Shown here: positions 26,606 to 45,898 of the stretch, piece after piece
How positions within the stretch are numbered: position 1 is the stretch's first letter
Layout: the number at the start of each line of letters is the position of its first letter
Assembly: GCF_000317795.1 (NCBI RefSeq)
Contig: NC_019791.1
Coordinates: 186,001-250,000, forward strand
Direction: 5' to 3'
DNA length: 64,000 nt
DNA from: Caldisphaera lagunensis DSM 15908
GTDB lineage: Archaea > Thermoproteota > Thermoprotei_A > Sulfolobales > Acidilobaceae
The notes under the pieces: generated by a model
Database searches by the model: none
Told to the model about the DNA's origin: nothing
The model's input: only the letters and a program-made list of their open reading frames with translations
Program-made: the position numbers and the translations under genes

Positions 26606-28192
26606 TTAGAATTTATTACTTCTAAAGACTAAATCTTGCACCTTTAATGAGAATGTTCTTAATATACCATATCCGGGAGGGGAAGCCATCAAACTTTTTG
26701 AGTATTCTTCCATTCCAATCTTCCTTAATGCATCTTCATCTGCCCTTAATGCTATCTTGCTATTTGATAGGGTTAAGATTAAATCATTAAGATCCGTGGG
26801 CCTATGAGTTGCAAGTATTGTTCCAATACCTCTTACCCTACCCAATCTCATTATTTTATTTATTAACCTTTCAAGCGCTTCTTTACTCTCTTCTTCTCTT
26901 CCGCCTTGAGGAAAATATTCATGAGCTTCATCAAATATAAAAATAAAAGGTGTTTCTTTTCCATCGGTTTTATAATTATTATCAATAATATTAAATATTC
27001 TTTCAGCTATAATAAATGCAGTAGTTGTTGAGCTAAGAGTACCTCTCTCTAATGCAAAACGTAGATCTACAACAGTCTTTTTATTTATTAATTCCGAATA
27101 TTTTGGTTCATCCAAATATAATTTGCCTTCTAATTTTATATCAAGTAATCCTGTATTTTCCAAACTTATTACAGATCTTAATATATTTTTTTCTGTAGAT
27201 TCATGCAAGTTATAGCTATTTAAAAATTTTTTACACTCTTTCTCCCATGAATCAATATCTGTTTTACAATTCTGAGTTATAAGTTTAAAGAACTGTGCTC
27301 CTTGTTGTGAAAATATTGGCGTAACATCAGGTAACAAATAATAGGTATTTGCTAATCTGAAACCAGAAATTATTAAATGAAATTCTTTTTCACCATTACT
27401 TAATATAAAATGGGTATCATCTATTTTTTCCTTAATCCTATAATCATTAAGCCCACTTCTAAAAAGAAAGATATTAATTAATTCATTGACTTTTTTATTG
27501 TAATCTCTTGTTATAGGCAACAAAATATATCCTCCAATCTCAGCCATTGATTTTACATAGTCACCTTGAATATCAAAAACTATTAATGGTATTTTGCTAT
27601 TAGCCATTATAATCTTTAACAAATTCGTCTTACCTGCACCTGTTGTACCAACAATTAGGATATGATGCCTAAGCATTTCATATGTGAGCTTAACAGGTAC
27701 ATCAATTTTTTTATATCCCTCCATTAAAGAACCTATTTCAATTCCATCGTCTAGAAGACCTAGCATTTCTCTTAGAAATTCTTGATTTGGTATAAATATT
27801 GGACTTTGGGGATCAATTGGAGATGATGGTGGTACTATATCATTTCCTACCTTTTCTGAAAGCAATTCAATAGTTAAAGATAGAGGTGTTGTTATTGCTG
27901 AAAAGTCCTCCATAGGTGATAAAGCTGGTATTTTTGATATAGCTAATATATCAGACCTTTCTACAGATTTAATCCTTCCCAATATTAATGTTTCAGAGAT
28001 AGGGATTGAAATACCTATATAGGTTCCAACTAAAAATTTTTTATTTAAATAAACATCAAATGGTATATCAGCTTTTATTTCTTTATTCTCTGTTCCATGA
28101 GAAATTGGAGAAACCCTAGATACTAAACCAACAACTTCTCCATATTTTTTTGCTCTTTCTTTTGCTTTTTCAATTATTTCGTTTTCATTCAT
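26606..28192 (-). CDS. herA: HerA-type bipolar DNA-translocating ATPase, copy 1
   Basis: A 528-residue FtsK/HerA-superfamily ATPase. The N-terminal HAS beta-barrel (about 20-110) is followed by Walker A GTTGAGKT (182-189), FDIQGDYVK, Walker B/DEAH (FIFDEAHEYF, about 418-427), RLGRVRGIGTILATHRP (arginine finger/sensor) and a C-terminal strand segment. HerA forms hexamers that drive NurA along DNA ends during break resection. The long frame begins at 28231, but ATG 28192 after GGTGGAAGA overlaps the NurA stop (ATGA), so translation is coupled. No mre11 or rad50 is next to it. A second HerA is encoded at 40-42 kb. Confidence 0.93.
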   Translation of the reverse strand: MNENEIIEKAKERAKKYGEVVGLVSRVSPISHGTENKEIKADIPFDVYLNKKFLVGTYIGISIPISETLILGRIKSVERSDILAISKIPALSPMEDFSAITTPLSLTIELLSEKVGNDIVPPSSPIDPQSPIFIPNQEFLREMLGLLDDGIEIGSLMEGYKKIDVPVKLTYEMLRHHILIVGTTGAGKTNLLKIIMANSKIPLIVFDIQGDYVKSMAEIGGYILLPITRDYNKKVNELINIFLFRSGLNDYRIKEKIDDTHFILSNGEKEFHLIISGFRLANTYYLLPDVTPIFSQQGAQFFKLITQNCKTDIDSWEKECKKFLNSYNLHESTEKNILRSVISLENTGLLDIKLEGKLYLDEPKYSELINKKTVVDLRFALERGTLSSTTTAFIIAERIFNIIDNNYKTDGKETPFIFIFDEAHEYFPQGGREEESKEALERLINKIMRLGRVRGIGTILATHRPTDLNDLILTLSNSKIALRADEDALRKIGMEEYSKSLMASPPGYGILRTFSLKVQDLVFRSNKF

Positions 28193-29199
28193 TCTTCCAC
28201 CTCTAGAGAAGCTCTCTGATAATTTAACCAATCTTCATAATTAACACCAATCATGGATTTTGCATATATGAATGAAATTAAAAATGCGGATGCGCCCAGT
28301 TTCCTACTTAATTTGTCAGCTGATTCGATAAATGTTGGTATTCCTCTGTATGAAGAATGGTTTATTGCAGTTTTAACTCCTTTACAGAGCATTTCTTTAT
28401 CAGGGCTTTCTACCCTAAAAACAGAATCTCTAACTTTGCAATAAACCATGTATCTCTTTAAGGATTTATTTGTAAGTTCTACCTTTTCTTCATAAATAGG
28501 TGATACATATATGATTTCATTTTTGCCTAGATACATTGTTATGACATCATCTGTTGCATTATCATTGAATTTCCATAAACCCCTTACTCTAGATAATTTT
28601 CTTGAATAATTTAACCTTTTCACAATACCAACTAAATTATCTGTTTTTCTATTTAAAATTAGTGTTTCATATGTTGACCTATAAGGCTCCCCAACCATAG
28701 GAAGATAAGGTCCGGGAAATACTGGACCATCAACTATCATTATATTGTTGGATGAATTTATTACATGATTTTCTAGATTAATCCTTAGTTCATCTAAAAT
28801 GTTATCGTCTTTATATGATTCATCATATCTAAAACCGTTTATATTTTCAGTTATAACAAAACTTGATAGATAGCTAGATTTAATTTTATCAATAACTTCT
28901 CTATCTCCTTTTATAGCCATAAACGGGATTGATGCCTGCAAAGGTATCATAATATGTTTTCCATTATCATTTGCATATAATGAAGATATGTAGATATTTG
29001 CTCCTCTAACACTTAAAACTCTTGATGATGAATCTAAATATGAGAAGGTTTTAAAATCATCACAGTCCCATATTTTATCAACTTCATATATTTCTGAGGC
29101 TTCCGAATAATTTGAAAATTCTATACCCAAATAAGGTCTTTCTTTTGAAATTTCGGAAAGGATTGAAATTAGATCTTTAACGGCTTTATGAAATTCCAT
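28189..29199 (-). CDS. nurA: NurA 5'-3' nuclease, copy 1
   Basis: A 336-residue NurA-family nuclease, with an RNase H-like fold and manganese dependence in studied members. Metal-binding Asp56 sits in TFSYLDSSSRVLSVRG and Asp157 in NIMIVDGPVFPGP. The YKSTYETL-like segment (EPYRSTYETLILN) and the late RGIPTFIESADKLSRK fit the family. The frame extends to 29268, but ATG 29199, eight bases after GGTG, is the likely start. It is the first gene of the nurA-herA pair, giving a HerA-NurA complex for DNA end resection. Pair 2 (38.9-42.2 kb) has the same gene order. Confidence 0.88.
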   Translation of the reverse strand: MEFHKAVKDLISILSEISKERPYLGIEFSNYSEASEIYEVDKIWDCDDFKTFSYLDSSSRVLSVRGANIYISSLYANDNGKHIMIPLQASIPFMAIKGDREVIDKIKSSYLSSFVITENINGFRYDESYKDDNILDELRINLENHVINSSNNIMIVDGPVFPGPYLPMVGEPYRSTYETLILNRKTDNLVGIVKRLNYSRKLSRVRGLWKFNDNATDDVITMYLGKNEIIYVSPIYEEKVELTNKSLKRYMVYCKVRDSVFRVESPDKEMLCKGVKTAINHSSYRGIPTFIESADKLSRKLGASAFLISFIYAKSMIGVNYEDWLNYQRASLEVEE

Positions 29200-29749
29200 T
29201 ATAAGACCACCTTTAAAGTCCAAATTAATTATATAATTATAAAAACTAATATTTTTATACGAAAACAATTTTTAAGTATAATAATTATAAATTTTATCTA
29301 AACTTACCGGAAGTATGTCTAGTAATAAAATTGATAAAGGATTATGCACGCTCTTAAAGTGAAAGATAAAAAACATATAAAACATGTGTATATGTATTAG
29401 TGTTAACTCCCCGGTTAACAATATAGAACTAATAAAAGATATATAAAGAATTTTTATAAATTCATGATTGTATTTTTATTTGATGTTATCAAAGATTGTG
29501 AGGATTCATAATTGCTATATTGTCATGATTTTTATATCACAAATTGTTATTTAATATTGTTAAATCAAAACAATATTTCCATAAAATCCGATTACTATTT
29601 CCATTTAGCTTAATTTTTCCTATTTACTAAAATCGATTTGTTTATATATAGCTAATATAGAAATTTAGCATATATCTATTTAACAAAAATTTAATCGTTT
29701 TATAGATATTCTATTCATTACTTATATCCTTAATATAAAATTAAAAAAT
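29200..29749. other. 550-bp intergenic region with two inverted repeats
   Basis: Spacer between NurA copy 1 and the end of the MmpL genes. Inverted repeat A: ACATATA (29373-29379) and TATATGT (29389-29395). Inverted repeat B: TGTTAAC (29401-29407), TCCCCG, GTTAACA (29414-29420). The two hairpins sit back to back. One possibility is terminators of the two flanking transcripts, another is a regulatory site. No gene was seen. Confidence 0.45.
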
Positions 29750-31912
29750 TTAATCGTTTTTCTTAATTTTTGATGGCCACCATGCATATTTTCCTAATAA
29801 ATATGCTATTGAGGGAGTGAAAAGAAAAGATGCCATTAGTCCAGCTATAATTACTCCGCTCATCAATGCTATCCCCATACCTCTAAAACCTGGTGCAGAA
29901 AAAGCGAGCAAACCTGAAAAAGCACCACCCATTATTACTGATAATCCTATTACTAAAACACTCATTCTACTCATAGCATTTGATACTGCTTCCTTTACAT
30001 CAACTTTTTCACTCTCTTCTCTTATCCTATTTATTATAAAGCTGTTATAGTCCATACCAACACCTAAAATTGCGGTAAAAACAACTATTGGTAAATACCA
30101 AGGTAATGTAATACCAGAAAAGCGATATAATTCAATAGCTATTGTGCTTCCAAATATTGCTGAAAATACAACACTTCCTAGCGCAGCTAAAGACATTGGA
30201 ACACTACCGAAGAATATTAAGAGAACAATAAACATCAATATTATTGCTATTGGATAAACTAAATGATAAAAGCTATGGTATACAATGTTTTTGAGATCTA
30301 AATTTATTGCAGCTTCTCCTCCAACCATAGCTTGGCTTGATATATTTTTAGATATTTCTCTTATAGTATTTTTACATGAAATTGCACTGCTACCTAGTGG
30401 ATAAACTGAGAGAGTAACCTGCAAAATGGGCTCCGTTTTATTTAATAGCTGAGTAGATTGAACACAGCTTAGCTTATATATTGACTGATTAATTTCATTT
30501 AATATTGTTGTATTAGGTGCAATTATATAATCAGGATATATTATACCAGATGCATAATTATTAGTTAAGTAATGAAGTGCATCAACAGCTTGGGAATTTT
30601 GAGGCATCATCAATGTAAAGTCATAGCTACCCTTGAATGTTGTATAAACATATAATGATGGTATTAATAAAATTACAACTATTGCTAAAATTATTGCAGA
30701 CCTTTCAGCAATTTTCCTTGATCTTCCATATTTACGATCATTATTTTTATAATCAATTTGTTTCTTCTTTATATTTGATGGCCACCAAACAATTCTGTTG
30801 CCACCTATTATTGATAGTAATGATGGTATAACAGTTAAGCTGATTATCATAATAATTATTATCGATATTGGTACCGCTTCTCCCAGACTTGCCAAAAATG
30901 GAAAGTCTGTTGCTAGAGACATTGACCCAAAACCTATAGCAGCAGTCAATGCTCCAGTAATTACAGCCTTCCAGCTTCTTTTTATTGCATTTTCAGCTGC
31001 TATTTTTGAATTACCAGTTTTTATAAATTCTTCCCTAAATCTTCTTGATATTAAACTTGAATAATCTATACCTAATCCTAGGCCTGCCAAATACATTAAT
31101 GTTCTGCTTATTGAATTTAGTGATAAAATGCCATGCGATGTCAATAGATAACCGATGCCCAATACAATGATTAATCCTAGGCCTATGCCTGTAAAGGGAA
31201 TTGCTATTGCAACTATGCTTTCCAATACTATTGCTAAAATTATTACAACAAGTAATGTACTAATAAAGTCGCTTTGGCTTATGCTCTTGATTGATGAATT
31301 TTGAAGTTGGTAATTAAGTATGAGAGTGCCTGTCAATAATATACTTGCATTTCCAAAACCTTTTGATCTTAAATCATTACTCAAATTTTTCTCCATTTTT
31401 AATGCTTGGGAATATGAAAGGTTGTTTGATAAAAATACTGCAAACCCATCTAAGTTATTCTGAATTAATAACCCTTTAATTTTGTTTATAACTTTATTAT
31501 AAGTCTTATTAAACAAGATTTGGGTTATATTAATGACTTCATTATTAAAACTTGATATATTTGTTATAACATTGATTGTAGATGATGTTAAAATTGGGGT
31601 AATATTATTTGTAAATCCCATTTTTAAAAGTGTACTATTTAATAAATAAGGCATTTCTTTAATTAATGAAGAGTAATTGTAAATTGGCATTGAATAATTT
31701 AACTCATTAATTAATAACCTTAACTTGCTGTTATTAATACTTTGGTTTATAAGAGATAAAGATAAATAATATGGATTTTCACCTCTTATCAATTTGATAG
31801 CTATATCAGGATTAGTATTGCTTATGTTGGATATTAATTCTGCAGAAACTACTTCTGTTTTCGTTATATTGTTATATAATATTAATGAGACGTTTGGATC
31901 ATATTCCAACAA
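29750..31912 (-). CDS. MmpL/RND-family exporter, C-terminal part
   Basis: A 720-residue polytopic protein. An extracellular portion is followed by about five membrane segments, DYSSLISRRFREEF (the GxDYxxF-like loop of MMPL proteins), a second extracellular domain and five or six more segments with GMDYNSFIINRIREES. This is the larger part of an MmpL/RND lipid- or drug-exporter; the N-terminal 444 residues are in the adjacent overlapping frame. The nominal start is TTG 31912, but no Shine-Dalgarno precedes it, and full-length archaeal MMPL proteins are about 1000-1200 residues. I therefore infer the two frames are one gene broken by a one-base shift near 31905-31920. Confidence 0.83.
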   Translation of the reverse strand: MLEYDPNVSLILYNNITKTEVVSAELISNISNTNPDIAIKLIRGENPYYLSLSLINQSINNSKLRLLINELNYSMPIYNYSSLIKEMPYLLNSTLLKMGFTNNITPILTSSTINVITNISSFNNEVINITQILFNKTYNKVINKIKGLLIQNNLDGFAVFLSNNLSYSQALKMEKNLSNDLRSKGFGNASILLTGTLILNYQLQNSSIKSISQSDFISTLLVVIILAIVLESIVAIAIPFTGIGLGLIIVLGIGYLLTSHGILSLNSISRTLMYLAGLGLGIDYSSLISRRFREEFIKTGNSKIAAENAIKRSWKAVITGALTAAIGFGSMSLATDFPFLASLGEAVPISIIIIMIISLTVIPSLLSIIGGNRIVWWPSNIKKKQIDYKNNDRKYGRSRKIAERSAIILAIVVILLIPSLYVYTTFKGSYDFTLMMPQNSQAVDALHYLTNNYASGIIYPDYIIAPNTTILNEINQSIYKLSCVQSTQLLNKTEPILQVTLSVYPLGSSAISCKNTIREISKNISSQAMVGGEAAINLDLKNIVYHSFYHLVYPIAIILMFIVLLIFFGSVPMSLAALGSVVFSAIFGSTIAIELYRFSGITLPWYLPIVVFTAILGVGMDYNSFIINRIREESEKVDVKEAVSNAMSRMSVLVIGLSVIMGGAFSGLLAFSAPGFRGMGIALMSGVIIAGLMASFLFTPSIAYLLGKYAWWPSKIKKND

Positions 31913-33233
31913 AATTTTTCGGTATATATATTGATATTAATTTGGAATAATTTTGATAAGATGATGGCAAATAATACAGAATCGTCTTTGCTGCATAAAT
32001 TGATGCGATCTCTGCATTAAAGCTATCATTAGATATAAATGATGAAAGGCCGATTGCAATTTCTCTTGGTAGCCTTTGAGATAAAATATCATATGTTGTT
32101 TGTTGAACAATGGAACCTAATTTACTATTATTAAAACCTGTTATGGCATATTGCATTCCTATACCATTAATTATAGTAGATTCTTCCTCATTTTCTATAG
32201 GTATAAATGATAAAATTTCTTTAAATGTTTCAATACTAGAATAGTTTGATATACTATTTAGCATATAATATAGCTTGTATTGGTTCTGTAAAGTTAAATT
32301 GTTTATAATAAAGTTTATTGGATATTTGGATGAAATGTTGTAAAATTCATTGCCATATGTTTTTAGTAAAGGAACAGCGCTTAATTCATTGCTACTGTTT
32401 AATTCATTATAAATAACTTGGTATGTGAAATTATTGGCCATCATATTATTAAATGCCTTTGGTCCACCATTTAACAAAACATACTTAAATAATGCCTCTA
32501 TTAATAAGGGTGAAGGTGATGATATGTTATTTATATATGGTGAATTTTCTAAAACTATTAGTATATCTTGTTTTGTTAAGTTCATTGTTTCATAGGCATT
32601 TGTTTTGTTGTACAACGCATATTCAGATCTCAATGCATTGAAATATATTTGCTCATATAATGATGAAATAGTTTTTGTATTATTTCCATAAAGAATAAGG
32701 GTTGATATGATTTCGGAATATGCTTTACTAAGATTTTCACCTGTTTGATAATAGTTGTAATAAATATAATCAGAATTTCTTATTAATGATGAAATTTGCA
32801 ATATACTATCTTTTAATGAATTAAGTTTTTCAGTTAAGTTAATAGTTTCATTCCAAAGGTTCTTTATCCCATTAGATATTTGTATACTAGTATTTAACAA
32901 AAAACTTGAGCTATTTTCAATATCGTTATATGTTGTGTTAAGTATTTTAAGAAAGCTCTCACCTCTTATATTAATACCTTTTAGTTTATAATATGTTTCT
33001 ATGTTTATTGGCACACCTGAAATCAAATAAATAACGTTGCTTTGGTTGCTTGAATTGCTTTCTTTATTAACAATATTCATTACCTCAATACTTTCAACAT
33101 TTTTAGGCAGCATTGATGATTCATTTGTTGATACAACGCTATTAATTTTTGCCATAAATGGGAAAAATATAACTGCCAAAATTAAAGCAACTATTATAAT
33201 TATATATGCATTCTTTCTATTTTTGCTATACAT
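31899..33233 (-). CDS. MmpL/RND-family exporter, N-terminal part
   Basis: A 444-residue protein: an N-terminal membrane segment (about 10-28) followed by NSVVSTNESSMLPKNVESIE, the classical start of the first extracellular domain of MMPL proteins, then a long Asn/Ser-rich extracellular helical region. It ends after KLISIYIPKNFVGI, overlapping the C-terminal part by 14 bp. Removing one base in the A5 or T4 run there joins PKI or PKN to LLEYDPNVSLILYNN and gives one protein of about 1160 residues. ATG 33233 follows AGGGAT. If the break is real, two half-proteins might still assemble. Confidence 0.75.
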   Translation of the reverse strand: MYSKNRKNAYIIIIVALILAVIFFPFMAKINSVVSTNESSMLPKNVESIEVMNIVNKESNSSNQSNVIYLISGVPINIETYYKLKGINIRGESFLKILNTTYNDIENSSSFLLNTSIQISNGIKNLWNETINLTEKLNSLKDSILQISSLIRNSDYIYYNYYQTGENLSKAYSEIISTLILYGNNTKTISSLYEQIYFNALRSEYALYNKTNAYETMNLTKQDILIVLENSPYINNISSPSPLLIEALFKYVLLNGGPKAFNNMMANNFTYQVIYNELNSSNELSAVPLLKTYGNEFYNISSKYPINFIINNLTLQNQYKLYYMLNSISNYSSIETFKEILSFIPIENEEESTIINGIGMQYAITGFNNSKLGSIVQQTTYDILSQRLPREIAIGLSSFISNDSFNAEIASIYAAKTILYYLPSSYQNYSKLISIYIPKNFVGI

Positions 33234-33670
33234 ATTGATCCCTGTTAGTTGATATATAAAATAGATTTTAAATCTTTATTTGAAAATAAATAATAAACAA
33301 TATTCTATTTTATAAATAAAAAAATTAAACGAAACTAATAAATGGGCATAAATCTATGACTTTCTCCATACTCTAAAAGGTCACGATCCTCTTAGGACTT
33401 TTCATATTCCTTTCATTGATTCTGATCAATCAGGCATCTTAATAACAAGTATGCAGAGAATTAAACCTACTTTTTCTACTCTAACGAAGGTGTTTTTAAT
33501 TGTTGTTGGCCACCTACTATTTATTAATCTTCCTCAATAGAGTGTAGGGCAAAAGTCTTTAGCATCACTCAAAGAATATCACTATTCAAATAAAAATTAT
33601 AAAAATGAATAAGCATTCTTTATTACTAGAACATGCTTATTATAAATTAATATTATTAAAAATAATTAAA
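33234..33670. other. 437-bp intergenic region with a coding-like, GC-richer core
   Basis: Bases about 33350-33590 are visibly less AT-rich than other gaps. One plus-strand frame is open for about 60 codons (33351-33540) with ordinary-looking protein sequence but no start with a ribosome site. I do not recognise a family. It may be the remnant of a decayed gene or mobile element. The last 80 bp are AT-rich. Confidence 0.3.
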
Positions 33671-34753
33671 TTAAAAATGATTTATTAATTCTTCAACAGG
33701 TATATAATCATAATCAAATCCAAAATGTCTAGGTCCAAATATTTCTAATCCTTTCTTAGTCCTCCAAATTTCTGGGGCTCTTATGGAAACTATATTTACA
33801 ACGATACCTTTTTCTATTTCATAATTTAATAAAGGTGTTCCATCATCTCTAGCAAATATAATGAGATCTGGTGGAAATACGGCAGGTTTATCATTTACTT
33901 TTAATAATATATGCTCATTTTTAATCCAGCTTTTTGCGATTATTTCTTTATTTTTAAATTGGCCTTTAACTGTTACTTCTCCTATAAGGAAACCTTCCTT
34001 TTCTTCTAAGTGATAATCTGTTATTTCTCCTCTCAAAATTTTGAAGCCATTTGTTAGCTTTACAACTTCATCTATGGGATCAAGTTTTTTATTTTTTGCC
34101 TCATATATTTTTTCGCCTATTTTTATTGATAGTGAAATAGTCTTTCTTACTATTGATTTTTTTGTCTCAATCGATGATAATGGTGTATCTATTACAAACG
34201 CAGAATTATCACCTGCTACAGATATTTGTCTTGCTATATGTTCATAATGGGAAGTATTGGCATATTTCTTTACTATAACAAGATCTCCATCATTTGTAGA
34301 TATGACAGATGGATATAAAGGATATCCCATAACATTGGCTGTTGACTGGTCAAGCTCAGGTGCAGCTCTTCCAATAAAATCCCCATCAATAACTGGAACT
34401 CCAAGTCTAGAAGCTATGTAAAAAACAATGGGTGTATTCCCTCCACCTATTTCCGATGCTGCAAGAGCAGAGATCTTCTTTCCAACAATGCTTTCTAAGG
34501 TATTAACGGTTTCAATAATTATATCTTCACTAAAATCTTTTTCTTTTGATGAAACACTACCAACAAAATATGGTACACCTATAATTGTATTTTCTGGTAG
34601 GTCTTCAACATCTATTATTTCTATTGGACCATGATCTAAGGCCTTGGAAAGCATTTTTAATCCTTGATTAGGATTTCCACCACCACCAGTTGCTAAAAAA
34701 CTTGCACCCAAAACTAGTTTTTTTGCATCTTCTATATTCGATAATTTTAACAT
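33671..34753 (-). CDS. DUF917-family protein (hydantoinase/thiohydantoin desulfurase-like)
   Basis: A 360-residue protein matching DUF917: GASFLATGGGGNPNQGLKML near the N-terminus, SEIGGGNTPIVF, PVIDGDFIGRAAPELDQST in the middle and PPDLIIFARDDGTPLLNYE late. Some relatives act on S-methyl-thiohydantoin, and others are annotated with hydantoinases. ATG 34753 follows GGGTGAATAAC, whose TGA ends the M29-type peptidase gene, so the genes are coupled. It is the last gene of a unit with a peptide-binding protein and the peptidase, pointing to breakdown of an imported peptide or cyclic amide. Substrate unknown. Confidence 0.8.
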   Translation of the reverse strand: MLKLSNIEDAKKLVLGASFLATGGGGNPNQGLKMLSKALDHGPIEIIDVEDLPENTIIGVPYFVGSVSSKEKDFSEDIIIETVNTLESIVGKKISALAASEIGGGNTPIVFYIASRLGVPVIDGDFIGRAAPELDQSTANVMGYPLYPSVISTNDGDLVIVKKYANTSHYEHIARQISVAGDNSAFVIDTPLSSIETKKSIVRKTISLSIKIGEKIYEAKNKKLDPIDEVVKLTNGFKILRGEITDYHLEEKEGFLIGEVTVKGQFKNKEIIAKSWIKNEHILLKVNDKPAVFPPDLIIFARDDGTPLLNYEIEKGIVVNIVSIRAPEIWRTKKGLEIFGPRHFGFDYDYIPVEELINHF

Positions 34754-34758
34754 GTTAT

Positions 34759-35811
34759 TCACCCAACAATAAGTGAGTTTATAATGGTTTTTAAATCTTC
34801 ATGTACAAAGTTTCCATTTTCTATTAATTTAGTTGTATCAACCCATACTGTTGGATATAGGGAAATTCCATCCGAATGAGATATCGCCGATCCTAGTTTT
34901 CCTTTAAATGTTTGTGATTGATTGCCTAAACCCCATTCAACTGCTCCAAATATTCTTTCATCTTCCAATATGTTTCCTGTAAGCTTTGCACCAGGATTAA
35001 CCCCATAAGAAATATGAGCAACTCTAAACATATTCCTGTCATTTAAAGATTTCAGCCATCTTTCATATATTTTAGCTTCATATCCTCCTTCAATTTCCTT
35101 TATATATCCCTTTTCTAGATGTAATTTGATTGGCGATTTTAATAAACCTAAACTTTCGGGAGGCCACACCGATCCATCAAAAACTATTGTACCCTCAATA
35201 CTATCTTCTATTGGAGCCCAATCAACTTGACCTAGTAACATATACTCTCCTGGGCCATTAACTTCTCCTTCTACTAAAACAGGCCTTTCTGGATCGTTAG
35301 AAAAAGTTACTTCCATACCATTGGGATTTGTTATTCTCATTTTGGACGATTTTTTAGTAATCTCTGCTAACTTGTTTTGTAATTCAAAAATCTTTTTTAT
35401 ATCAACTCTTCCTATAGTTCTAACCATCATATCTGAGTCCATTCCAACAAGACACATATATCTGGTTTTTCCATTAGATATCGCTTTTTCATATACCTTT
35501 GAATATAGCAGCCAAGATTTATTGAATTCAATCCATACATCAGGAGATTCCATTAATGATGATAGACTACTTACAGGTATATATTTTTCAGCAGCATGGC
35601 CTACTTCTGGTGGACTTTCAAAAACAACTATTAAAGGTTTACCTGACAATAATTTAACTGCTTTAGCTGTTTCATTAACAACATTCATATCAGATCTTGT
35701 ATCAGCTGTTATTATTACTTCTTCTCCAGGTTCAACTTTTAATATATCCTTAACAAGCTTATATGCTGAAAAAGATACTTCAATACTTAGTTTTGATAGT
35801 TCTGCAGTCAC
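34759..35811 (-). CDS. M29-type metallopeptidase (aminopeptidase T/NicX-like)
   Basis: A 350-residue protein of the thermophilic aminopeptidase (M29) superfamily, which also includes the 2,5-dihydroxypyridine dioxygenase NicX. Seen: KVEPGEEVIITADTRSDM at the N-terminus, GEVNGPGEYMLLGQVDWAP, EIEGGYEAKIYERWLKSLND, VAHISYGVNPGAKLTGNILED and ERIFGAVEWGLGNQ with ISHSDGISL. Glu, His and Asp metal ligands are expected in the last three. Start GTG 35811 lies right after the binding-protein stop, with GGTGGGTGA upstream. Context (oligopeptide-binding protein, DUF917) favours a peptidase role, but NicX-like ring chemistry cannot be excluded. Confidence 0.8.
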   Translation of the reverse strand: MTAELSKLSIEVSFSAYKLVKDILKVEPGEEVIITADTRSDMNVVNETAKAVKLLSGKPLIVVFESPPEVGHAAEKYIPVSSLSSLMESPDVWIEFNKSWLLYSKVYEKAISNGKTRYMCLVGMDSDMMVRTIGRVDIKKIFELQNKLAEITKKSSKMRITNPNGMEVTFSNDPERPVLVEGEVNGPGEYMLLGQVDWAPIEDSIEGTIVFDGSVWPPESLGLLKSPIKLHLEKGYIKEIEGGYEAKIYERWLKSLNDRNMFRVAHISYGVNPGAKLTGNILEDERIFGAVEWGLGNQSQTFKGKLGSAISHSDGISLYPTVWVDTTKLIENGNFVHEDLKTIINSLIVG

Positions 35812-38637
35812 TTAGCTTTTCACCCACCATGGATAGAATGAATCTCCAGCCCCTCCCCCCCAATCAAGCGGATTTTCTTGTAACGCAATATTGTTCTGAT
35901 ATGGATGTATATATGGCTTCACTATCCAAAATCCTCCCTGTATATATAAATATACATACATATATAAGTTAACAGCTTGTTGTTCAGCCTCCTTAAATAG
36001 CAATGATGCATTTGGATATCCATTAAATTCGGCTTGATCGGCTTCTTGTATTAAGATATTTAATTTTTGATCAGCTATACTTTCATTATATATAAGAGCT
36101 CCCAAGTTTATTTCGCCAGTTGAATTTAGATAAGAGCTTACGTTTTCAAAATAGGATGGGTTAAAGCTATCAGCGTATGTAGCCCAACCACTTGATTGAT
36201 ACAAACCATAAAATACATCATCAGGTCTAGCATAATCTGGAATCCATGCTACAAAGTAAATTGGCATTGGGTTATATCCAGGAGACATATATGCATTCAT
36301 TAAACTCCATGGAATATAAGTCGGTATTATATTAATATTAGGATCTATGTTGTGCAATGCCTGGGACCACATTAAAACAGCGGTATATATCTGAGTATCT
36401 CCTGCCTGAATAAATACAGGGAAGTTAACGCTTACGTTATACATTCCAGATTTTATTAGCAATTCTTTGGCATATGTTAAGTTAAACGTTGGACAACCAG
36501 ATAACTCAGATGGTGGAACATAATAAAGATAACCAGGCAGAATACCACCGCAATAAGGAATACCAAAAGTTACATGATATATTGAATTTCCTAAAATATC
36601 ATTGATAAATTCAGTATAGTTAAAAGCATAAGCATATGCCTCTCTAACTAATGGATTTGCAAAATAATAAGATGGCATATTATATAATGGATTAATTTGT
36701 TTTAGCATTTGTACATTTACATTAGGATTAAAGGCAAAAACCCAATTTGTTAATGTCGGGAATTGATATATAACTGCCTGCCCTTTGCTTTCCAGGCTTA
36801 AAAACGATGGAATATATTGTGGAGGCATATTAGATACAATATCTGCCTGACCTGATGCGAACATCTCATAAGCAGTATTTGGATCCTTTACCCAATATAT
36901 TATAACAGTGTTATTTGGTTTTGGTATATTTGGTAATCCTGGATAATACGGATTTGGAACTAATACAATACTTTCTCCGGGAGCATATGATTTTATCATA
37001 TATGGACCTGAAGATATTGGATCCCATTGAACTTGTGTATTATAATTACCTAAATTACATTCACTCTCATAGTTGTAAAATCCTTGAGGTGTAAAGTTTA
37101 TGCCAGCACCTACTTGCTCAAGCCATTTTGCATCTAAAATTCCTTGTCCCTCAATATCACCTAACGCAACGTAAAATATTGTAGGAGGTGCCGATTTTAC
37201 TAAATGAAATGTAACAGTATTTGTCTGATTATCATAAGTTATTGCATTCATTATTTCATTAAATCCTTCAGTATCGTTGGGAGACGTCACAATAGACAAG
37301 CCTGGAGTATAATTTGGAATTAGGAATTGAGCTAAAATCCAGCCTGGAGTAAATGGGGTCCCTCCTGCACACAACAAATCTCTTACTTCACTATACCATA
37401 CATCATACGCAGTTAAATTATCCCCATTACTAAATTTAAGATTTGGCCTTATTTTAAAGGTATAAACAGAGTAATTTGGTGCAATACCCCCATAAAGATT
37501 TCTTTGTGACCAATTACCAACTGTTGGTAAATATTCAGCTGCCATTGGTAAGAAGGAAGTCATATTATTTCCATTATATGTTACTAAAGTAGAAAATATA
37601 TTATACATGATTTCGGCTCCAACACTTTCATAGTCAATTTGTGGATCAAAACTAAATGGTCCACCTGGCTGGTTTTCTGCAACAATTATTGTACCGGGAT
37701 TTGGAACTTGAATTAATGGTTTAAATATAGAGTAAGGATATTGTGAAGATTGTACAGCTATGGTTTGGATTGTTGTATAATTATAAGTACCATTAGTATA
37801 AATGTTTTTAGTAACAATAGTTAATGAGATCGCATACAATCCTTGTTTATTGTATGATATCTTAATCGGATTAACTTTTGGTTCTATATAAGTCAGATTC
37901 CCGGATCCTATTTTTATTACTTGCAAAGCATACTCTGTTGAGTTTATAGCTGGTATAGTTATTGAGGTTCCATTACCAAAGTTCCATATATATTCATATA
38001 TTGTCATATTTTGACCATATGGTGGTTGTAAGAAACCTCCTATCAAATATATCTTCTCTCCTACTGTAAATATTGGTGCTGTTGGATTATCTGTTGTATT
38101 AAATGTTATAACTGGAACAGAAACTAATCCAGACAATGAAGAAGGTATATTAGGTGCAACGGTTATTTCTATCAGATTTGTTGAAGAAGAGCCTATCAAC
38201 ATACCATTTTGATATACTTCATAATAAACCAAATAATGTCCAGGATATGTATAATTAACACTTTCATATTGGCTTGTTGTATTAATAACAGTTCCATTAC
38301 CTGCATAGAATAATGCATATCTATTGCTTGATGGAGTAAATGATGATAATACAAAATTAATTGGTGTTCCTGCTACTGTTGTATAGCTTGATGGAGCTAC
38401 AGGACTTAATACTGTCACAGAAATAGGGGAGCTAGTAGTAGTAGAACTTGTTGTAGTTGTAGTAGTGGAAATAGTAGAACTTGTTGTAGTTGTAGTAGTG
38501 GAAATAGTAGAACTTGTTGTAGTTACTACAGAAGGTTTTTTGATTGCATAATAAACTCCTACTAAAGCAACAATTATTATAATAATTACTATAGCAGCAA
38601 CAACACCTTTTGAAATAGACCTAAAATTCCCAATCAA
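35812..38637 (-). CDS. ABC transporter substrate-binding protein, oligopeptide type (SBP_bac_5), membrane-anchored
   Basis: About 941 residues. An N-terminal membrane anchor (about 9-31) is followed by a Thr/Ser linker, two beta-sandwich (PKD-like) domains (about 65-310, e.g. SYTTVAGTPINFVLSSFTP and KIYLIGGFLQPP) and then the family 5 binding domain from about 330: AENQPGGPFSFDPQIDYES, IRPNLKFSNGDNLTAYDVWYS, and SSGPYMIKSYAPGESIVLVP. It should capture peptides outside the cell. The linker and anchor are typical of archaeal binding proteins. The frame reaches ATG 38664, but TTG 38637 after GGTGGGTG is better placed. No permease or ATPase partner is adjacent. It is the first gene of the unit with the M29-type peptidase. 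Confidence 0.87.
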   Translation of the reverse strand: MIGNFRSISKGVVAAIVIIIIIVALVGVYYAIKKPSVVTTTSSTISTTTTTTSSTISTTTTTTSSTTTSSPISVTVLSPVAPSSYTTVAGTPINFVLSSFTPSSNRYALFYAGNGTVINTTSQYESVNYTYPGHYLVYYEVYQNGMLIGSSSTNLIEITVAPNIPSSLSGLVSVPVITFNTTDNPTAPIFTVGEKIYLIGGFLQPPYGQNMTIYEYIWNFGNGTSITIPAINSTEYALQVIKIGSGNLTYIEPKVNPIKISYNKQGLYAISLTIVTKNIYTNGTYNYTTIQTIAVQSSQYPYSIFKPLIQVPNPGTIIVAENQPGGPFSFDPQIDYESVGAEIMYNIFSTLVTYNGNNMTSFLPMAAEYLPTVGNWSQRNLYGGIAPNYSVYTFKIRPNLKFSNGDNLTAYDVWYSEVRDLLCAGGTPFTPGWILAQFLIPNYTPGLSIVTSPNDTEGFNEIMNAITYDNQTNTVTFHLVKSAPPTIFYVALGDIEGQGILDAKWLEQVGAGINFTPQGFYNYESECNLGNYNTQVQWDPISSGPYMIKSYAPGESIVLVPNPYYPGLPNIPKPNNTVIIYWVKDPNTAYEMFASGQADIVSNMPPQYIPSFLSLESKGQAVIYQFPTLTNWVFAFNPNVNVQMLKQINPLYNMPSYYFANPLVREAYAYAFNYTEFINDILGNSIYHVTFGIPYCGGILPGYLYYVPPSELSGCPTFNLTYAKELLIKSGMYNVSVNFPVFIQAGDTQIYTAVLMWSQALHNIDPNINIIPTYIPWSLMNAYMSPGYNPMPIYFVAWIPDYARPDDVFYGLYQSSGWATYADSFNPSYFENVSSYLNSTGEINLGALIYNESIADQKLNILIQEADQAEFNGYPNASLLFKEAEQQAVNLYMYVYLYIQGGFWIVKPYIHPYQNNIALQENPLDWGGGAGDSFYPWWVKS
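38442..38526 (-). repeat. 33-bp tandem repeat encoding the Ser/Thr linker
   Basis: The same sequence recurs at 38442, 38475 and 38508 (period 33 bp, 11 codons), encoding Ser-Ser-Thr-Ile-Ser-Thr6-type repeats between membrane anchor and extracellular domain of the peptide-binding protein. Probably an O-glycosylated stalk that can vary in length. Confidence 0.85.
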
Positions 38638-38877
38638 TACACACCCACCTTTTTCCTTTTTCATTTGTTTTTAGTGCGGTTATAAAAATTTTTTGTTAAG
38701 GTACATTAAATAAATTAGACTTACTATTATTTTTTGTCTCTTATAATTTTCTTCCTTCCAAGATGCTTGAATATTTCATTTTAAATTTAACTTCATCTAT
38801 ATGATCATAATTTTTCTAATTTTCAATTTATTAAATATATATATGGTAATACGCATAATATTATAAAGTGATAGGCG

Positions 38878-40098
38878 ATGAAATTGAATTTAGATATGCC
38901 AACAAAGATCATAAATAGCCTTGGAAATGATATAATAAGTTCCTACAAAACTTCTTATAGCAAAAAAAGATTCCTTCTTACTTTAAAAGATATTATTGAA
39001 GAGGATGTAAATGAAAACGAAACCAAAGCAGAATTATATGAATATTCTTCTCGTTTTTTTAACAGTAAAAAAATTGTTAATGATAAAAATTTATTTGTAA
39101 TTGGATTGGATTCAAGCAGTAGAGCCATAATAACTCCAATTGCTGACATAATTATTTCTGCAGTCTCTATATCAGGCCAAGGTCCTGTTGAATTAAGCGA
39201 TTGGCCATATTTATATAGAGACTTAGCATATATACCAATAAATCCTGAACCTTTCATATACGTTGCATCTGATGATTTAAATGTATCTGACTATTCTAAT
39301 GAATACATAAAGCAATTTAGATCATTAGATAATGAAGATGACTTATCTAAAATTATGGATTATTCTAGGCTTAGTTTAGAATCATGGGGAATTAAGGAAC
39401 CATCATTTGCCTTAGGAAATTACTTTAAAAGAAAAGGGAAGAAATTTGTTTTATTGCTAGATGGCCCAATTTATTTATTGGATAATAAAAATGATTATAT
39501 AAAATCAAATCTAATGAAAAATAGATCAAATGAAATAGAAATACTAGAAAATCAAGGGATACCGGTAATTGGAGTAGTAAAGAGAATAGAAAGAAGCAAA
39601 ATTTTAACAAACGTTCAAGACTTTTCAAATATTTTAAGTCAATGTATTGGAAATTATGAGACTCTAAATGATTCATTAATAATACAAAAAATGCTTTATT
39701 CTAATTGTTATAATAATTATTATGGGAAAATATTAACTACACCGAAAATTAAGGTTAGATCAAATGGATTAGATAAAATCGTTGAATATGTATTAATCCC
39801 TCCCAGTAGGTATCAAAGCATAAATAAAGGAAGAATTTTTAGACTTGAATATACTGAAAAAACTTTAGATATATTAAACAACAATTATTCTTTAGAACCA
39901 GTTCAAATATTAATAAATGATTCAATTTTTAAACAAAGCAATGAATCAATAACTATTGCATATAGTGATAAAAGAGGGAAAATGATAACCCAAATTTTAA
40001 AAGATCTCTTTATAAATACTATCGTAGGAAGGGGAGCACCAATATCTTATGACACACTCAGAGAGGCTGAAGCAACATGGATAAAAAGGAAAACGTAG
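38878..40098 (+). CDS. nurA: NurA-like nuclease, copy 2
   Basis: A 406-residue NurA-family protein, longer and clearly divergent from copy 1. Metal-site Asp78 lies in LFVIGLDSSSRAI and Asp195 in FVLLLDGPIYLL; the GIPVIGVVKRIERSK strand follows, as in NurA. The C-terminal GRGAPISYDTLREAEATW matches the closing helix region of copy 1 (RGIPTFIESADKLSRK). A TATA-like TTAAATATATATATGG lies near 38830-38845; ATG 38878 is preceded by GTGATAGGCG. It overlaps HerA copy 2 by 22 bp, so they are expressed together. Presumably it forms a separate HerA-NurA complex. Confidence 0.8.
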   Translation: MKLNLDMPTKIINSLGNDIISSYKTSYSKKRFLLTLKDIIEEDVNENETKAELYEYSSRFFNSKKIVNDKNLFVIGLDSSSRAIITPIADIIISAVSISGQGPVELSDWPYLYRDLAYIPINPEPFIYVASDDLNVSDYSNEYIKQFRSLDNEDDLSKIMDYSRLSLESWGIKEPSFALGNYFKRKGKKFVLLLDGPIYLLDNKNDYIKSNLMKNRSNEIEILENQGIPVIGVVKRIERSKILTNVQDFSNILSQCIGNYETLNDSLIIQKMLYSNCYNNYYGKILTTPKIKVRSNGLDKIVEYVLIPPSRYQSINKGRIFRLEYTEKTLDILNNNYSLEPVQILINDSIFKQSNESITIAYSDKRGKMITQILKDLFINTIVGRGAPISYDTLREAEATWIKRKT

Positions 40099-42197
40099 GA
40101 CTTAATGAAGAAATCTTAAATAACGCAGAAGATCAAGTTAAAAAAATTGAAAAACTTCTTTCCAAAGCTTATGAGGAAGCAGAGAAAAATGGTAAATTAA
40201 TAGGAAGGATTTCTAGATATGGGGAAGTAAGAGTAGAAGAAAACTCTGAAGTAGATTTTATTATAGACCCTTCAACGTATTATTCTGAAAACGATGCCCC
40301 TTTTCATAAAGTTGGGGACTATCTTGTTGCTATAGATCCAAAAGATATGAGACTTGTTTTAATAAGAATTAAAAGTATAATTAGGAAAGATGAATTAGCA
40401 GCTATTGGTCTAGAACCCCCTATAAGTCAAATAGTTAATAGCATAGAGCCTAGAGGACTAATAACAAACACGATTGTTAAGGGAGAACTTGTATTAGAAA
40501 TTAATAAAAATGATAAAAACCCAAGACCTGCAACAAAAAGTATTGAACCTCAATCTCCAGTAATAGATCCTGATCCAGAAGTCTTAGCTAGGCTTTTAGA
40601 CTTACCACAGGAAGGCATAACAATTGGGGCATTAAGCACACCTTCTGGATTAGTTAAGAATGGTCAAATACCAGTTAAGTTACCATTGCACACAGTTTAT
40701 CATCACATATTAATTTTAGGCACAACAGGGAGTGGAAAAACTACATTGCTAAAAAACATGATAGCAAGCATGTATAATCAATTAGAAAAGCACCCAATTT
40801 CAATAATAATAGATTCAAATCAAGACTTTGTGCAATTACCTATTTCAAATAATATAAAACCAATACCAGAAGAAATTTTAAACAGTTGTTATAAAAACGT
40901 TAAGGAATTAGATGGTATAATATCAGTTGTTCCAATTTCTTTTGATTTAATCCAACAAAAATTTGAAAAGGAAAGAGAGGGAATTAATGAAGTATTAATT
41001 GATATAGCTAAGAAATATTTTAATGAAACATTTTCTCCATTTATTCAAAACAATAAGGTTGATTTCAATTTAATTGTTAGAGATAATACTATCATTTTAA
41101 AAACCGATTATCCATTTAAATTAATATTTGTTCCATATGTAATAAACACATTAGAAACCAGCACTGATAATTTATCTCCCCTTTTACCTGGTATAACTTT
41201 ATTAGCAAAAGATTTGCTTAAGAAAATGAGAGAAAACTTTAAAAGAAAACATAAGGTATATCCTCCGATACAGGCTATTTATGGAGCATTATCAGTATTT
41301 ATGGATAAATCTATTTATAAATTAAACAAAAATAATTATGGATTGAAACTTGATGATATATTAGAGCAGGCCCTTGAATATATAAATCCATATATAGTTT
41401 CGATAAGTAGAGATTTTAATCTAGATTTACATAATATGAAAATAGGTAATTATAATTTAACTTTATTTGATGCGGTTGAAGAATACATTGAATCTCTACA
41501 AAGGGCAAGACCGCATGAAGAAACTATTAAGGCTTTATATAGAAGAATATCTTCATTGATTGAATCTCAAATAGTTGATATTATTATTCCACAAAACAAT
41601 AAATTAATACCATTAAATGAACCCAATTGGGAAACAATAGTAAATATAGCAAATGAAGAAAATATACCAATAGTATTAGATTTGAAATGGAACCTCGATT
41701 TGATCGGATTAGATCCTTTAAGGTTAGTTACATATAGAACTCTTGATAAGTTAATTTCATGGAAACAGAAGTCATGGACACAAAGAAATGAGACCCCAAA
41801 CATTATGGTAGTAATAGATGAAGCTCATCAATTTTTCCAAAACGAAAGCAAGGTAAAAGAAGATGTAGATGCAATAAGACAGGTTTCTGCGATGATATCA
41901 AAAATTGCTAGATTAGGTAGGGCTAGAGGGGTTGGTCTAATATTTAGCACTCATTCTCCAGCTGATCTCAATGATATTATTTTACAATTAACAAACACAA
42001 AAATAATTTTGAGGACTGATAAAAGTCAAATTGAAAGAATATCAATACCAAAGGAAGTAAATGAATATTTGTCTAGACTTCAAGACAGAACGATGCTTGT
42101 GGAAAGTTATGCTTTTAGAATGGGTTACCTATTTGCACAAACTACAACACCTTTAACTGCGCACTATGATATTTCTGCAAACATATCATATTATTAA
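40077..42197 (+). CDS. herA: HerA-type DNA-translocating ATPase, copy 2 (large form)
   Basis: A 706-residue HerA-superfamily ATPase. The N-terminal coiled segment and HAS barrel (about 35-145) precede Walker A GTTGSGKT (215-222), IIIDSNQDFV, Walker B IDEAH (580-584), IARLGRARGVGLIFSTHSP and LTNTKIILRTD. The stretch between Walker A and B is about 365 residues, some 125 more than in copy 1, so this protein carries an extra helical insertion (roughly 260-540). ATG 40077 lies inside the nurA copy 2 frame. Walker and arginine-finger residues look intact, so it should be active. Whether it does housekeeping repair or a specialised task such as defence is unknown. Confidence 0.88.
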   Translation: MDKKENVGLNEEILNNAEDQVKKIEKLLSKAYEEAEKNGKLIGRISRYGEVRVEENSEVDFIIDPSTYYSENDAPFHKVGDYLVAIDPKDMRLVLIRIKSIIRKDELAAIGLEPPISQIVNSIEPRGLITNTIVKGELVLEINKNDKNPRPATKSIEPQSPVIDPDPEVLARLLDLPQEGITIGALSTPSGLVKNGQIPVKLPLHTVYHHILILGTTGSGKTTLLKNMIASMYNQLEKHPISIIIDSNQDFVQLPISNNIKPIPEEILNSCYKNVKELDGIISVVPISFDLIQQKFEKEREGINEVLIDIAKKYFNETFSPFIQNNKVDFNLIVRDNTIILKTDYPFKLIFVPYVINTLETSTDNLSPLLPGITLLAKDLLKKMRENFKRKHKVYPPIQAIYGALSVFMDKSIYKLNKNNYGLKLDDILEQALEYINPYIVSISRDFNLDLHNMKIGNYNLTLFDAVEEYIESLQRARPHEETIKALYRRISSLIESQIVDIIIPQNNKLIPLNEPNWETIVNIANEENIPIVLDLKWNLDLIGLDPLRLVTYRTLDKLISWKQKSWTQRNETPNIMVVIDEAHQFFQNESKVKEDVDAIRQVSAMISKIARLGRARGVGLIFSTHSPADLNDIILQLTNTKIILRTDKSQIERISIPKEVNEYLSRLQDRTMLVESYAFRMGYLFAQTTTPLTAHYDISANISYY

Positions 42198-42227: not shown

Positions 42228-42761
42228 ATGTTGAGTCACGTATTTACTAGGACTGGTGATGATGGTAATACATATTGCAATCTATTGAAGACAAGGGTTC
42301 CTAAAGATCATCCTATAATAGAATTAATTGGAACACTAGATGAAGCAAATAGCTTTATAGGTTTGGCAAGGTCTTTTATACCATCATATATGAGCGATGT
42401 AGGAAATGATCTAAAGGATTTGCAATATTTAACGTTTAGAATAGGATTCCATGTTTCTGGAATTAATTCTTTAAAAGAAGAAGACGTGAAAAAGCTAGAA
42501 GAATTAGCAGATAAATACTATGGCAAGGCACCTCTAAAGAACTTTATTTTGCCTGCAGGTCCCCAACCATCCGCTGCCTTACACGTTGCAAGGACCATAG
42601 TTAGGAGAGCAGAAAGGGATTTGATTAAAGCCAGCAGAGTATATAAGTTTGATGATATTGTTTTTAAAACAATTAATAGGCTAAGTAGCGTATTATTTGC
42701 CATGGCAGTATATATTAGCAAGGAAATGGGATATCCAGAAGAGCCTGTTTCTTTTAGGTGA
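42228..42761 (+). CDS. ATP:cob(I)alamin adenosyltransferase, PduO type
   Basis: A 177-residue helical protein that adds the adenosyl group of ATP to cob(I)alamin to make coenzyme B12. Diagnostic N-terminal FTRTGDDGNTYCN (ATP loop), IELIGTLDEANSFIGLAR and the C-terminal ILPAGPQPSAALHVARTIVRRAERDL, all PduO hallmarks. Start ATG 42228, with GGGGG close upstream; TTG 42231 is also possible. It follows herA copy 2 by 30 bp and is coupled to the next gene (AGGTGA overlaps the stop), so it may share a transcript with either. It implies use of an adenosylcobalamin-dependent enzyme somewhere in the genome. Confidence 0.92.
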   Translation: MLSHVFTRTGDDGNTYCNLLKTRVPKDHPIIELIGTLDEANSFIGLARSFIPSYMSDVGNDLKDLQYLTFRIGFHVSGINSLKEEDVKKLEELADKYYGKAPLKNFILPAGPQPSAALHVARTIVRRAERDLIKASRVYKFDDIVFKTINRLSSVLFAMAVYISKEMGYPEEPVSFR

Positions 42762-42766
42762 ATTAT

Positions 42767-44215: not shown

Positions 44216-44985
44216 GATGTTGGCGCTAAAAGATACCTTATTTTACTTTTATCTGGAGCATTAAAAATTAATTCTATAGGCTTATCGCTTGAGAATCTTA
44301 TCTCTACTGTTTCGGCAATTTTTGCTAGATTTAAAACACTCTTTAAGAAATTTACATCATACGAGCTTACAGATTTCTTTTTTGATTCCAAATCAATCAA
44401 TGAACTTGAACCTTTTGATAAATTTACTTCAGCCTTAGGTCCTTCTCCTTTTGCTCTTATTTTAAAACTATTCTCATCAACTTCTAACTCTACAACGTCT
44501 CCAAAAGCGCTTGCATCAGTTAATATTTTCTTAAAGGTATCTCCTATGATAACAACCCTAGAATCAAAATCAAGCTTTATATCCTTTGGAACATCTATAA
44601 CTACTTCTATATTTGGAATCAAATATTTTTTAATTACATCTCCTTCAATTTTAATCAATATATATTGATCTGAAACGAGAAAATCTACATTTTCACCTTT
44701 TTTACCCCTTGATACTATATTGTCTAATGATTGAATATTTACCCCCATGTTTGTCTCTTGATCAACTTCGTAATCCAAAAATGTTTCATAGGGCATGTTA
44801 ATTTCTAAATATGTTATTTTTCCTGGATCTGTTGCAACAACTTTAACTCCATTTTTACTTATTTCAAAATTTGCCTCTTCAACTATCTCAGCTAGTGTGG
44901 AAGTCATTTGGCGGAGGACTCTAGAATCAGGATATTTGAATTTTGCTTTTGCTTTTCCTATTTGTGATTCTATGCTAGATTCCAT
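44209..44985 (-). CDS. pcn: DNA polymerase sliding clamp (PCNA)
   Basis: A 258-residue PCNA. It has the archaeal two-domain clamp layout: KFKYPDSRVLRQMTSTLAEI, ISKNGVKVVATDPGKITYLE, then VDQETNMGVNIQSLDNIV, an inter-domain segment and the C-terminal IELIFNAPDKSKIRYLLAPT. It encircles DNA and tethers polymerase, ligase, Fen1 and others. Crenarchaea usually have two or three PCNA paralogues forming heterotrimers; only one is here. ATG 44985 follows GGGATTAAAA, and an AT-rich TATA-like segment lies near 45000-45010. It is transcribed divergently from the prenyltransferase. Confidence 0.95.
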   Translation of the reverse strand: MESSIESQIGKAKAKFKYPDSRVLRQMTSTLAEIVEEANFEISKNGVKVVATDPGKITYLEINMPYETFLDYEVDQETNMGVNIQSLDNIVSRGKKGENVDFLVSDQYILIKIEGDVIKKYLIPNIEVVIDVPKDIKLDFDSRVVIIGDTFKKILTDASAFGDVVELEVDENSFKIRAKGEGPKAEVNLSKGSSSLIDLESKKKSVSSYDVNFLKSVLNLAKIAETVEIRFSSDKPIELIFNAPDKSKIRYLLAPTSQ

Positions 44986-45046
44986 TTTTAATCCCTATTT
45001 TAATATAATATTAGGAGGGATTAATAAAAGTAATGAGCTGATCAAA

Positions 45047-45889: not shown

Positions 45890-45898
45890 GTGAATAAG

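What the first reader, a model, noticed from the sequence alone, without database searches (positions are those of the whole stretch)
26606..42197. Two complete NurA-HerA modules 9.7 kb apart
NurA (28189-29199) with HerA (26606-28192) on the minus strand, and NurA2 (38878-40098) with HerA2 (40077-42197) on the plus strand. Both have nurA first, overlapping genes, and intact Walker A/B and metal-site residues. The proteins differ greatly in size (336/528 versus 406/706 residues), so this is no recent duplication. HerA-NurA is normally a DNA end-resection machine linked to Mre11-Rad50, absent here. NurA- and HerA-related pairs also occur in prokaryotic antiviral systems. The second module could be a specialised repair or defence complex. 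This is the best candidate for an undescribed system in the window.
Basis: partly seen in the sequence, partly recalled or inferred. Interest (0 to 1): 0.75.

Follow-up and report, generated by a model that had tools for sequence, protein, structure and literature searches.

The report
Two extra NurA-HerA pairs, one CRISPR-linked
This hot-spring archaeon has three DNA-chewing nuclease-motor pairs: the ordinary repair one elsewhere in its genome, a family heirloom, and a horizontally acquired one whose closest relatives often sit beside or inside CRISPR immune operons although no CRISPR genes were found in this genome, so it may be a free-standing antiviral machine.

Summary
In detail: both NurA-HerA pairs are intact, with nurA first, overlapping genes and all motifs. 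The premise is incomplete. The genome (1,546,846 bp; fits Caldisphaera lagunensis) has a third, canonical mre11-rad50-nurA-herA operon at 582-589 kb. Multiple NurA-HerA pairs are normal in this phylum, and a CRISPR-linked pair (nurA-csm6-herA) was described in Pyrobaculum in 2012.

Pair 2 is vertically inherited: 29 of 36 family genomes, its own clade, PCNA nearby in its own and a neighbouring genus, no cas gene found in 22 relatives' loci. Pair 1 is patchy: 3 of 36 family genomes but 12 of 31 Sulfolobaceae. Both its proteins nest in the Sulfolobaceae clade, and a single origin of the Caldisphaera copies is rejected (AU p = 0.005). In 10 of 15 non-Caldisphaera relatives pair 1 lies near cas genes or a CRISPR array; in several it directly follows csa5-cas7-cas5-cas3'-cas3''-csaX of type I-A. 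This genome shows no Cas1, Cas7 (DevR) or type III RAMP.

Best reading: pair 1 is an orphan, horizontally spread, CRISPR-accessory NurA-HerA, probably a translocating DNA shredder used in defence; pair 2 is a house-keeping paralogue. Function is untested. New variant of a known kind.

The parts
28189..29199 (-). nurA1: NurA nuclease of pair 1, 336 aa
   Evidence: PF09376 E=1.5e-18; PADLOC NurA 'Type III coevolved' 1.4e-19; AF2 model matches 2ygk; D56/E143/D157/K194 conserved
26606..28192 (-). herA1: HerA translocase of pair 1, 528 aa; ATGA overlap with nurA1
   Evidence: DUF87 2.3e-14, HerA_C 1.5e-11; PADLOC HerA 'Type III coevolved' 2.3e-57; Walker A and B intact
38878..40098 (+). nurA2: NurA nuclease of pair 2, 406 aa
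   Evidence: PF09376 3.2e-11; AF2 model matches 2ygk; D78/E168/D195/K235 conserved
40077..42197 (+). herA2: HerA translocase of pair 2, 706 aa; 22-nt overlap with nurA2
   Evidence: DUF87 9.1e-10, HerA_C 8.5e-9; Walker A and B intact
42228..46621 (.). house-keeping block (cobalamin adenosyltransferase, aldehyde dehydrogenase-like ORF, PCNA, UbiA-type ORF, 243-aa ORF) next to pair 2, kept with pair 2 in the genus and a neighbouring genus; context, not part of the machine
   Evidence: clusters c3-c7 in L125-L132; Pfam of the cobalamin adenosyltransferase and PCNA; the other names are from reading the ORFs

Best explanation
The two pairs do different jobs. Pair 1 (26606-29199) is an orphan copy of a CRISPR-accessory NurA-HerA module. 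In Sulfolobaceae and a few other Sulfolobales it is often part of, or near, type I-A interference operons, CARF-protein genes or CRISPR arrays, and it entered Caldisphaera by horizontal transfer, probably more than once. By homology to solved HerA-NurA, a HerA1 hexamer should pump double-stranded DNA from an end into a NurA1 dimer that cuts both strands. Linked to type I-A it would finish off DNA opened by Cas3'/Cas3'', or supply fragments for spacer acquisition. In Caldisphaera, where no cas gene was found, it would have to act by itself on free ends of invading DNA. Pair 2 (38878-42197) is an old, vertically inherited paralogue, most likely a specialised house-keeping DNA-end processor. Shown here: gene anatomy, intact catalytic residues, clades, patchy versus vertical distribution, cas linkage of pair 1 relatives, no detected Cas1/Cas7/RAMP in this genome. 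Inferred: complex formation, activity, defence role, division of labour.
For: Canonical operon elsewhere, so both pairs are extra. Pair 1 in 3/36 family genomes, 12/31 Sulfolobaceae; pair 2 in 29/36. HerA1 and NurA1 nest in the Sulfolobaceae group; single Caldisphaera clade rejected, p-AU 0.005, NurA1-HerA1 identity correlation 0.95. Type I-A cassette with csaX directly before nurA-herA in L106, same cassette adjacent in L109, L119, L120, partly L122; csm6/csa1 in L117, csx1/csa1 in L118; csa3 in L108, cas6 in L107; 73-repeat CRISPR array in L110. 10/15 against 0/22 pair-2 loci and 0/12 other HerA/NurA loci of Sulfolobaceae. No Cas1, DevR/Cas7, RAMP in this genome (positive control). Mechanism from T. 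kodakarensis HerA-NurA (PMC12977600).
Against: No functional data. 5 of 15 non-Caldisphaera pair-1 loci and all Caldisphaera ones show no cas gene nearby. Fisher values ignore relatedness and unequal locus lengths. GC content gives no sign of transfer. Genome-wide CRISPR arrays and Cas10 were not searched. Seven family genomes without a NurA2 match may be incomplete or may have lost it.
Confidence: 0.55

Rival explanations
1. Both pairs are ordinary lineage-specific repair paralogues; the cas neighbours of pair 1 relatives are incidental, from shared variable islands.
For: Multiple NurA-HerA pairs are common in the order and phylum (PMC3396285); 5 of 15 pair-1 loci and all Caldisphaera ones show no cas gene; canonical NurA-HerA is a repair machine, essential in S. 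islandicus (PMC4351679).
Against: nurA-herA lies directly behind csaX in several genomes of two families; the association takes different forms (I-A operon, csm6, csx1, csa3, array), which is hard to get by one shared inheritance; other HerA/NurA loci of Sulfolobaceae show none.
Confidence: 0.2
2. Pair 1 serves spacer acquisition (making pre-spacers or repairing the array) rather than target destruction, as proposed for nurA-csm6-herA in Pyrobaculum.
For: csa1 (Cas4-like adaptation gene) beside it in L117 and L118; proposal of PMC3396285.
Against: Most linked loci adjoin the interference operon, not cas1-cas2-cas4; it persists in this genome where no Cas1 was found.
Confidence: 0.12
3. In Caldisphaera pair 1 is a functionless leftover of a lost CRISPR system.
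For: No cas genes found in the genome; herA1 is split in one relative, L111.
Against: Both genes of pair 1 are open with all motifs at 54-65% identity to relatives; the L111 break coincides with an unread base; separate acquisitions.
Confidence: 0.1
4. Pair 2 is the specialised defence module.
For: HerA2 also matches the PADLOC 'Type III coevolved' HerA model (2.4e-47); NurA2 is strongly diverged from the canonical one.
Against: 29 of 36 family genomes carry it, own clade following the family; no cas gene in 22 loci; synteny with house-keeping genes including PCNA; NurA2 scores only 19 bits on the PADLOC NurA model against 69 for NurA1.
Confidence: 0.07

Closest known systems
nurA-csm6-herA cluster of Pyrobaculum and other Thermoproteales (PMC3396285; PADLOC PDLC01055/PDLC01056 'Type III coevolved')
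   Same: A NurA-HerA pair beside CRISPR arrays and CARF genes; pair 1 is the best NurA match of that model in this genome; csm6 (APE2256) also beside pair 1 in L117.
   Different: Pair 1 falls outside the Thermoproteales clade in both trees and scores 68-105 bits where Thermoproteales NurAs score 200-458; its linkage is mostly to type I-A/csaX; in Caldisphaera no cas gene was found.
Canonical archaeal mre11-rad50-nurA-herA (L012 here; SiRe_0061-0064)
   Same: Same protein families, gene pairing, catalytic residues and predicted fold.
   Different: Separate long branch in both trees; neither window pair is near mre11-rad50; the genome has its own canonical set.
HerA-SIR2 and HerA-DUF4297 bacterial anti-phage systems
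   Same: HerA-type motor coupled to an effector enzyme (PMC12977600, PMC11291478).
   Different: Effector is NurA, not SIR2 or DUF4297; the NCBIfam antiphage HerA models stay far below their cut-offs (42 of 800).
HerA-NurA of Thermococcus kodakarensis
   Same: Predicted NurA fold matches it; its dsDNA-pumping, two-strand-cutting mechanism is the model used here (PMC12977600).
   Different: Only about 10-12% identity in the structural alignment.

Membership tests
NurA nuclease / HerA translocase families | Family profile above curated cut-off, NurA fold, catalytic D/E/D/K, Walker A and B | tested here: met
NurA nuclease / HerA translocase families | Complex formation, ATP-dependent DNA degradation | not testable with these tools
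   needs purified proteins
Canonical Mre11-Rad50-linked end-resection module | Operon with mre11 and rad50, branching with canonical HerA/NurA | tested here: not met
   Neither pair; the canonical set is at 582-589 kb
CRISPR-accessory NurA-HerA (type I-A-linked clade, pair 1) | Branches with NurA-HerA pairs that adjoin cas genes or arrays | tested here: met
   10 of 15 non-Caldisphaera loci linked
CRISPR-accessory NurA-HerA (type I-A-linked clade, pair 1) | cas genes or array beside the pair in this genome | tested here: not met
   No cas match in the window; no Cas1, DevR or RAMP in the genome
Thermoproteales nurA-csm6-herA (PADLOC 'Type III coevolved') | Member of that NurA/HerA clade, csm6 between or beside the genes | tested here: not met
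   Outside the clade; no csm6 in the window
Anti-phage defence system | Protection against virus or plasmid | not testable with these tools
   needs an infection experiment

The most novel reading that the evidence does not exclude
A NurA-HerA pair recruited as accessory nuclease of type I-A (csaX) CRISPR interference in Sulfolobales has become a mobile, stand-alone antiviral DNA shredder that spreads into lineages without CRISPR, as in Caldisphaera.
Probability: 0.3. Interest if true: 0.65.

Novelty: new variant of a known kind. Interest (0 to 1): 0.42.

Why it matters
It separates three kinds of NurA-HerA in one small genome and shows that the extra ones are not equivalent. If pair 1 is an interference-linked nuclease that also works without CRISPR, it shows how a house-keeping repair machine can become an immune effector, and gives a compact test case in genetically tractable Sulfolobaceae. 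It would also extend the HerA-plus-effector defence theme, known from HerA-SIR2 and HerA-DUF4297 in bacteria, to HerA-NurA in archaea, a possibility raised for T. kodakarensis (PMC12977600).

Tried and rejected
Mobile elements: no relative of NurA1 in the plasmid or phage collections, of HerA2 in plasmids or of HerA1 in phages, none of NurA1 or NurA2 in viral contigs. GC content does not mark pair 1 as foreign (29.8% against 29.6%). CRISPR-like repeats reported at window 9999-10167 lie inside a coding repeat, and those of L112 look like a coding repeat too; both discarded. The broken herA1 of L111 lies at an unread base and was not used as evidence of decay. Profile searches of both NurA groups against PDB sequences found no NurA; the fold search did. 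The His of canonical NurA is Asp in both window NurAs, but also in some canonical ones, so it is no marker. The genome-contig scan gave only 8 named loci. Blackwood 2012, the Csa3a repair paper and two further CRISPR papers were not held.

Full report
1. What is there. Start-stop overlaps (ATGA in pair 1, 22 nt in pair 2), Walker motifs and NurA catalytic residues are preserved (residues as given for S. islandicus NurA in PMC4351679). AlphaFold models of both NurAs have a solved NurA as best match. The pairs are old paralogues: HerA1-HerA2 27.6% identity, NurA1-NurA2 only marginal.

2. What the window hides. The genome is one contig of 1,546,846 bp with the window at 186,001-250,000. The size fits Caldisphaera lagunensis DSM 15908 (from memory; the name is not given by any tool), and relatives fetched by name include a Caldisphaera sp. 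and an Acidilobaceae archaeon. A third NurA-HerA pair lies at 586-589 kb directly behind mre11 and rad50 (mre11 and rad50 named from reading the ORFs). So neither window pair is the Mre11-Rad50 end-resection module, and 'Mre11-Rad50 absent' is true only of the window. Multiple pairs are common: many Sulfolobaceae genomes have 4-7 NurA genes (f11 read as Sulfolobaceae), and Pyrobaculum has three or more pairs, one CRISPR-linked (PMC3396285).

3. Pair 2 is inherited. NurA2 finds relatives in 29 of 36 genomes of the family. HerA2 and NurA2 form their own clades with family f9 (read as Desulfurococcaceae) as nearest outside group. In its own and a neighbouring genus pair 2 stands by the same block with cobalamin adenosyltransferase and PCNA. 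In one f9 genome (L144) it stands directly before a second nurA-herA pair whose members branch with the canonical ones. None of 22 pair-2 loci shows a cas gene or array. This is a conserved paralogue, most simply a house-keeping DNA-end processor.

4. Pair 1 is acquired and CRISPR-linked. Strong NurA1 relatives occur in only 3 of 36 family genomes, all of the genus, but in 12 of 31 Sulfolobaceae and in family f5. NurA1 and HerA1 nest inside the Sulfolobaceae group. On joined proteins the three Caldisphaera-genus copies do not form one clade (p-AU 0.005), which suggests at least two acquisitions, and the two proteins change together (identity correlation 0.95). Gene orientation differs within the genus: divergent in L111 and L115, co-oriented in the window.

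5. Neighbourhood of pair 1 relatives. In L106 nurA-herA directly follows cas6-csa3-csa5-cas7-cas5-cas3'-cas3''-csaX, a type I-A interference operon (cas6 below its cut-off). The same cassette is adjacent in L109, L119 and L120, and in part in L122. L117 has csm6 (APE2256) and csa1, L118 csx1 and csa1, L108 csa3, L107 a cas6 5.7 kb away, L110 a CRISPR array of 73 repeats. That is 10 of 15 non-Caldisphaera loci, against 0 of 22 pair-2 loci and 0 of 12 other HerA/NurA loci of Sulfolobaceae (Fisher 9e-6 and 4e-4). Relatedness and unequal locus lengths (the 12 are 13 kb, most others up to 20 kb) make these values optimistic.

6. No cas genes found at home. In this genome no Cas1, no DevR/Cas7 (the model finds the Cas7 proteins of these cassettes at E below 1e-70) and no type III RAMP was found. 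The two other genomes of the genus with pair 1 also lack DevR and RAMP; the one with cas remnants (G148; L150, L272) has no pair 1. Either pair 1 is a leftover or it works alone. Intactness and separate acquisition favour use.

7. Mechanism. The T. kodakarensis HerA-NurA complex drives dsDNA into NurA with ATP and cuts both strands (PMC12977600). Pair 1 has the parts for this. With type I-A it could degrade DNA opened by Cas3'/Cas3'' or make pre-spacers; without CRISPR it could attack free ends of incoming DNA. These steps are inference; nothing here tests activity.

8. Place among known things. CRISPR-linked NurA-HerA is known in Thermoproteales (PMC3396285; PADLOC models), and NurA and HerA are named among putative CRISPR auxiliary genes (PMC10910872). 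Pair 1 lies outside the Thermoproteales clade. The type I-A/csaX operon link and its orphan form were not found in the papers searched, which leave out most subscription journals.

Noticed in passing
window 21855-23551 (+): An AMP-binding/acyl-CoA synthetase-like gene is split into two ORFs (355 and 191 aa); probable frameshift or pseudogene.
   Followed up: no
window 29750-33233 (-): MMPL-type exporter next to pair 1 encoded as two overlapping ORFs (720 aa with PF03176, and 444 aa).
   Followed up: partly
window 9841-10593 (+): Coiled-coil ORF with an internal coding repeat that mimics a CRISPR in a repeat finder.
   Followed up: partly
window 35812-38664 (-) and L012:10897-13581 (+): Related large ORFs (window one: SBP_bac_5 solute-binding protein) sit beside pair 2 and beside the canonical herA; probably coincidence.
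   Followed up: no
L270 and L271 (G148:C128): A genome of the same genus without pair 1 has yet another nurA-herA pair, whose HerA ORF looks closer to the canonical kind.
   Followed up: partly
L144:8954-15126: In an f9 genome a pair-2 relative stands directly before a second nurA-herA pair: nurA-herA-nurA-herA in a row.
   Followed up: partly
L108:6949-8109, L111:256-1275, L107:8023: An archaeal ATPase gene of one cluster (c16; Pfam ATPase_2 in L108, weaker in L111) lies next to or near pair 1 in three genomes; such ATPases are abundant, so it may be chance.
   Followed up: partly
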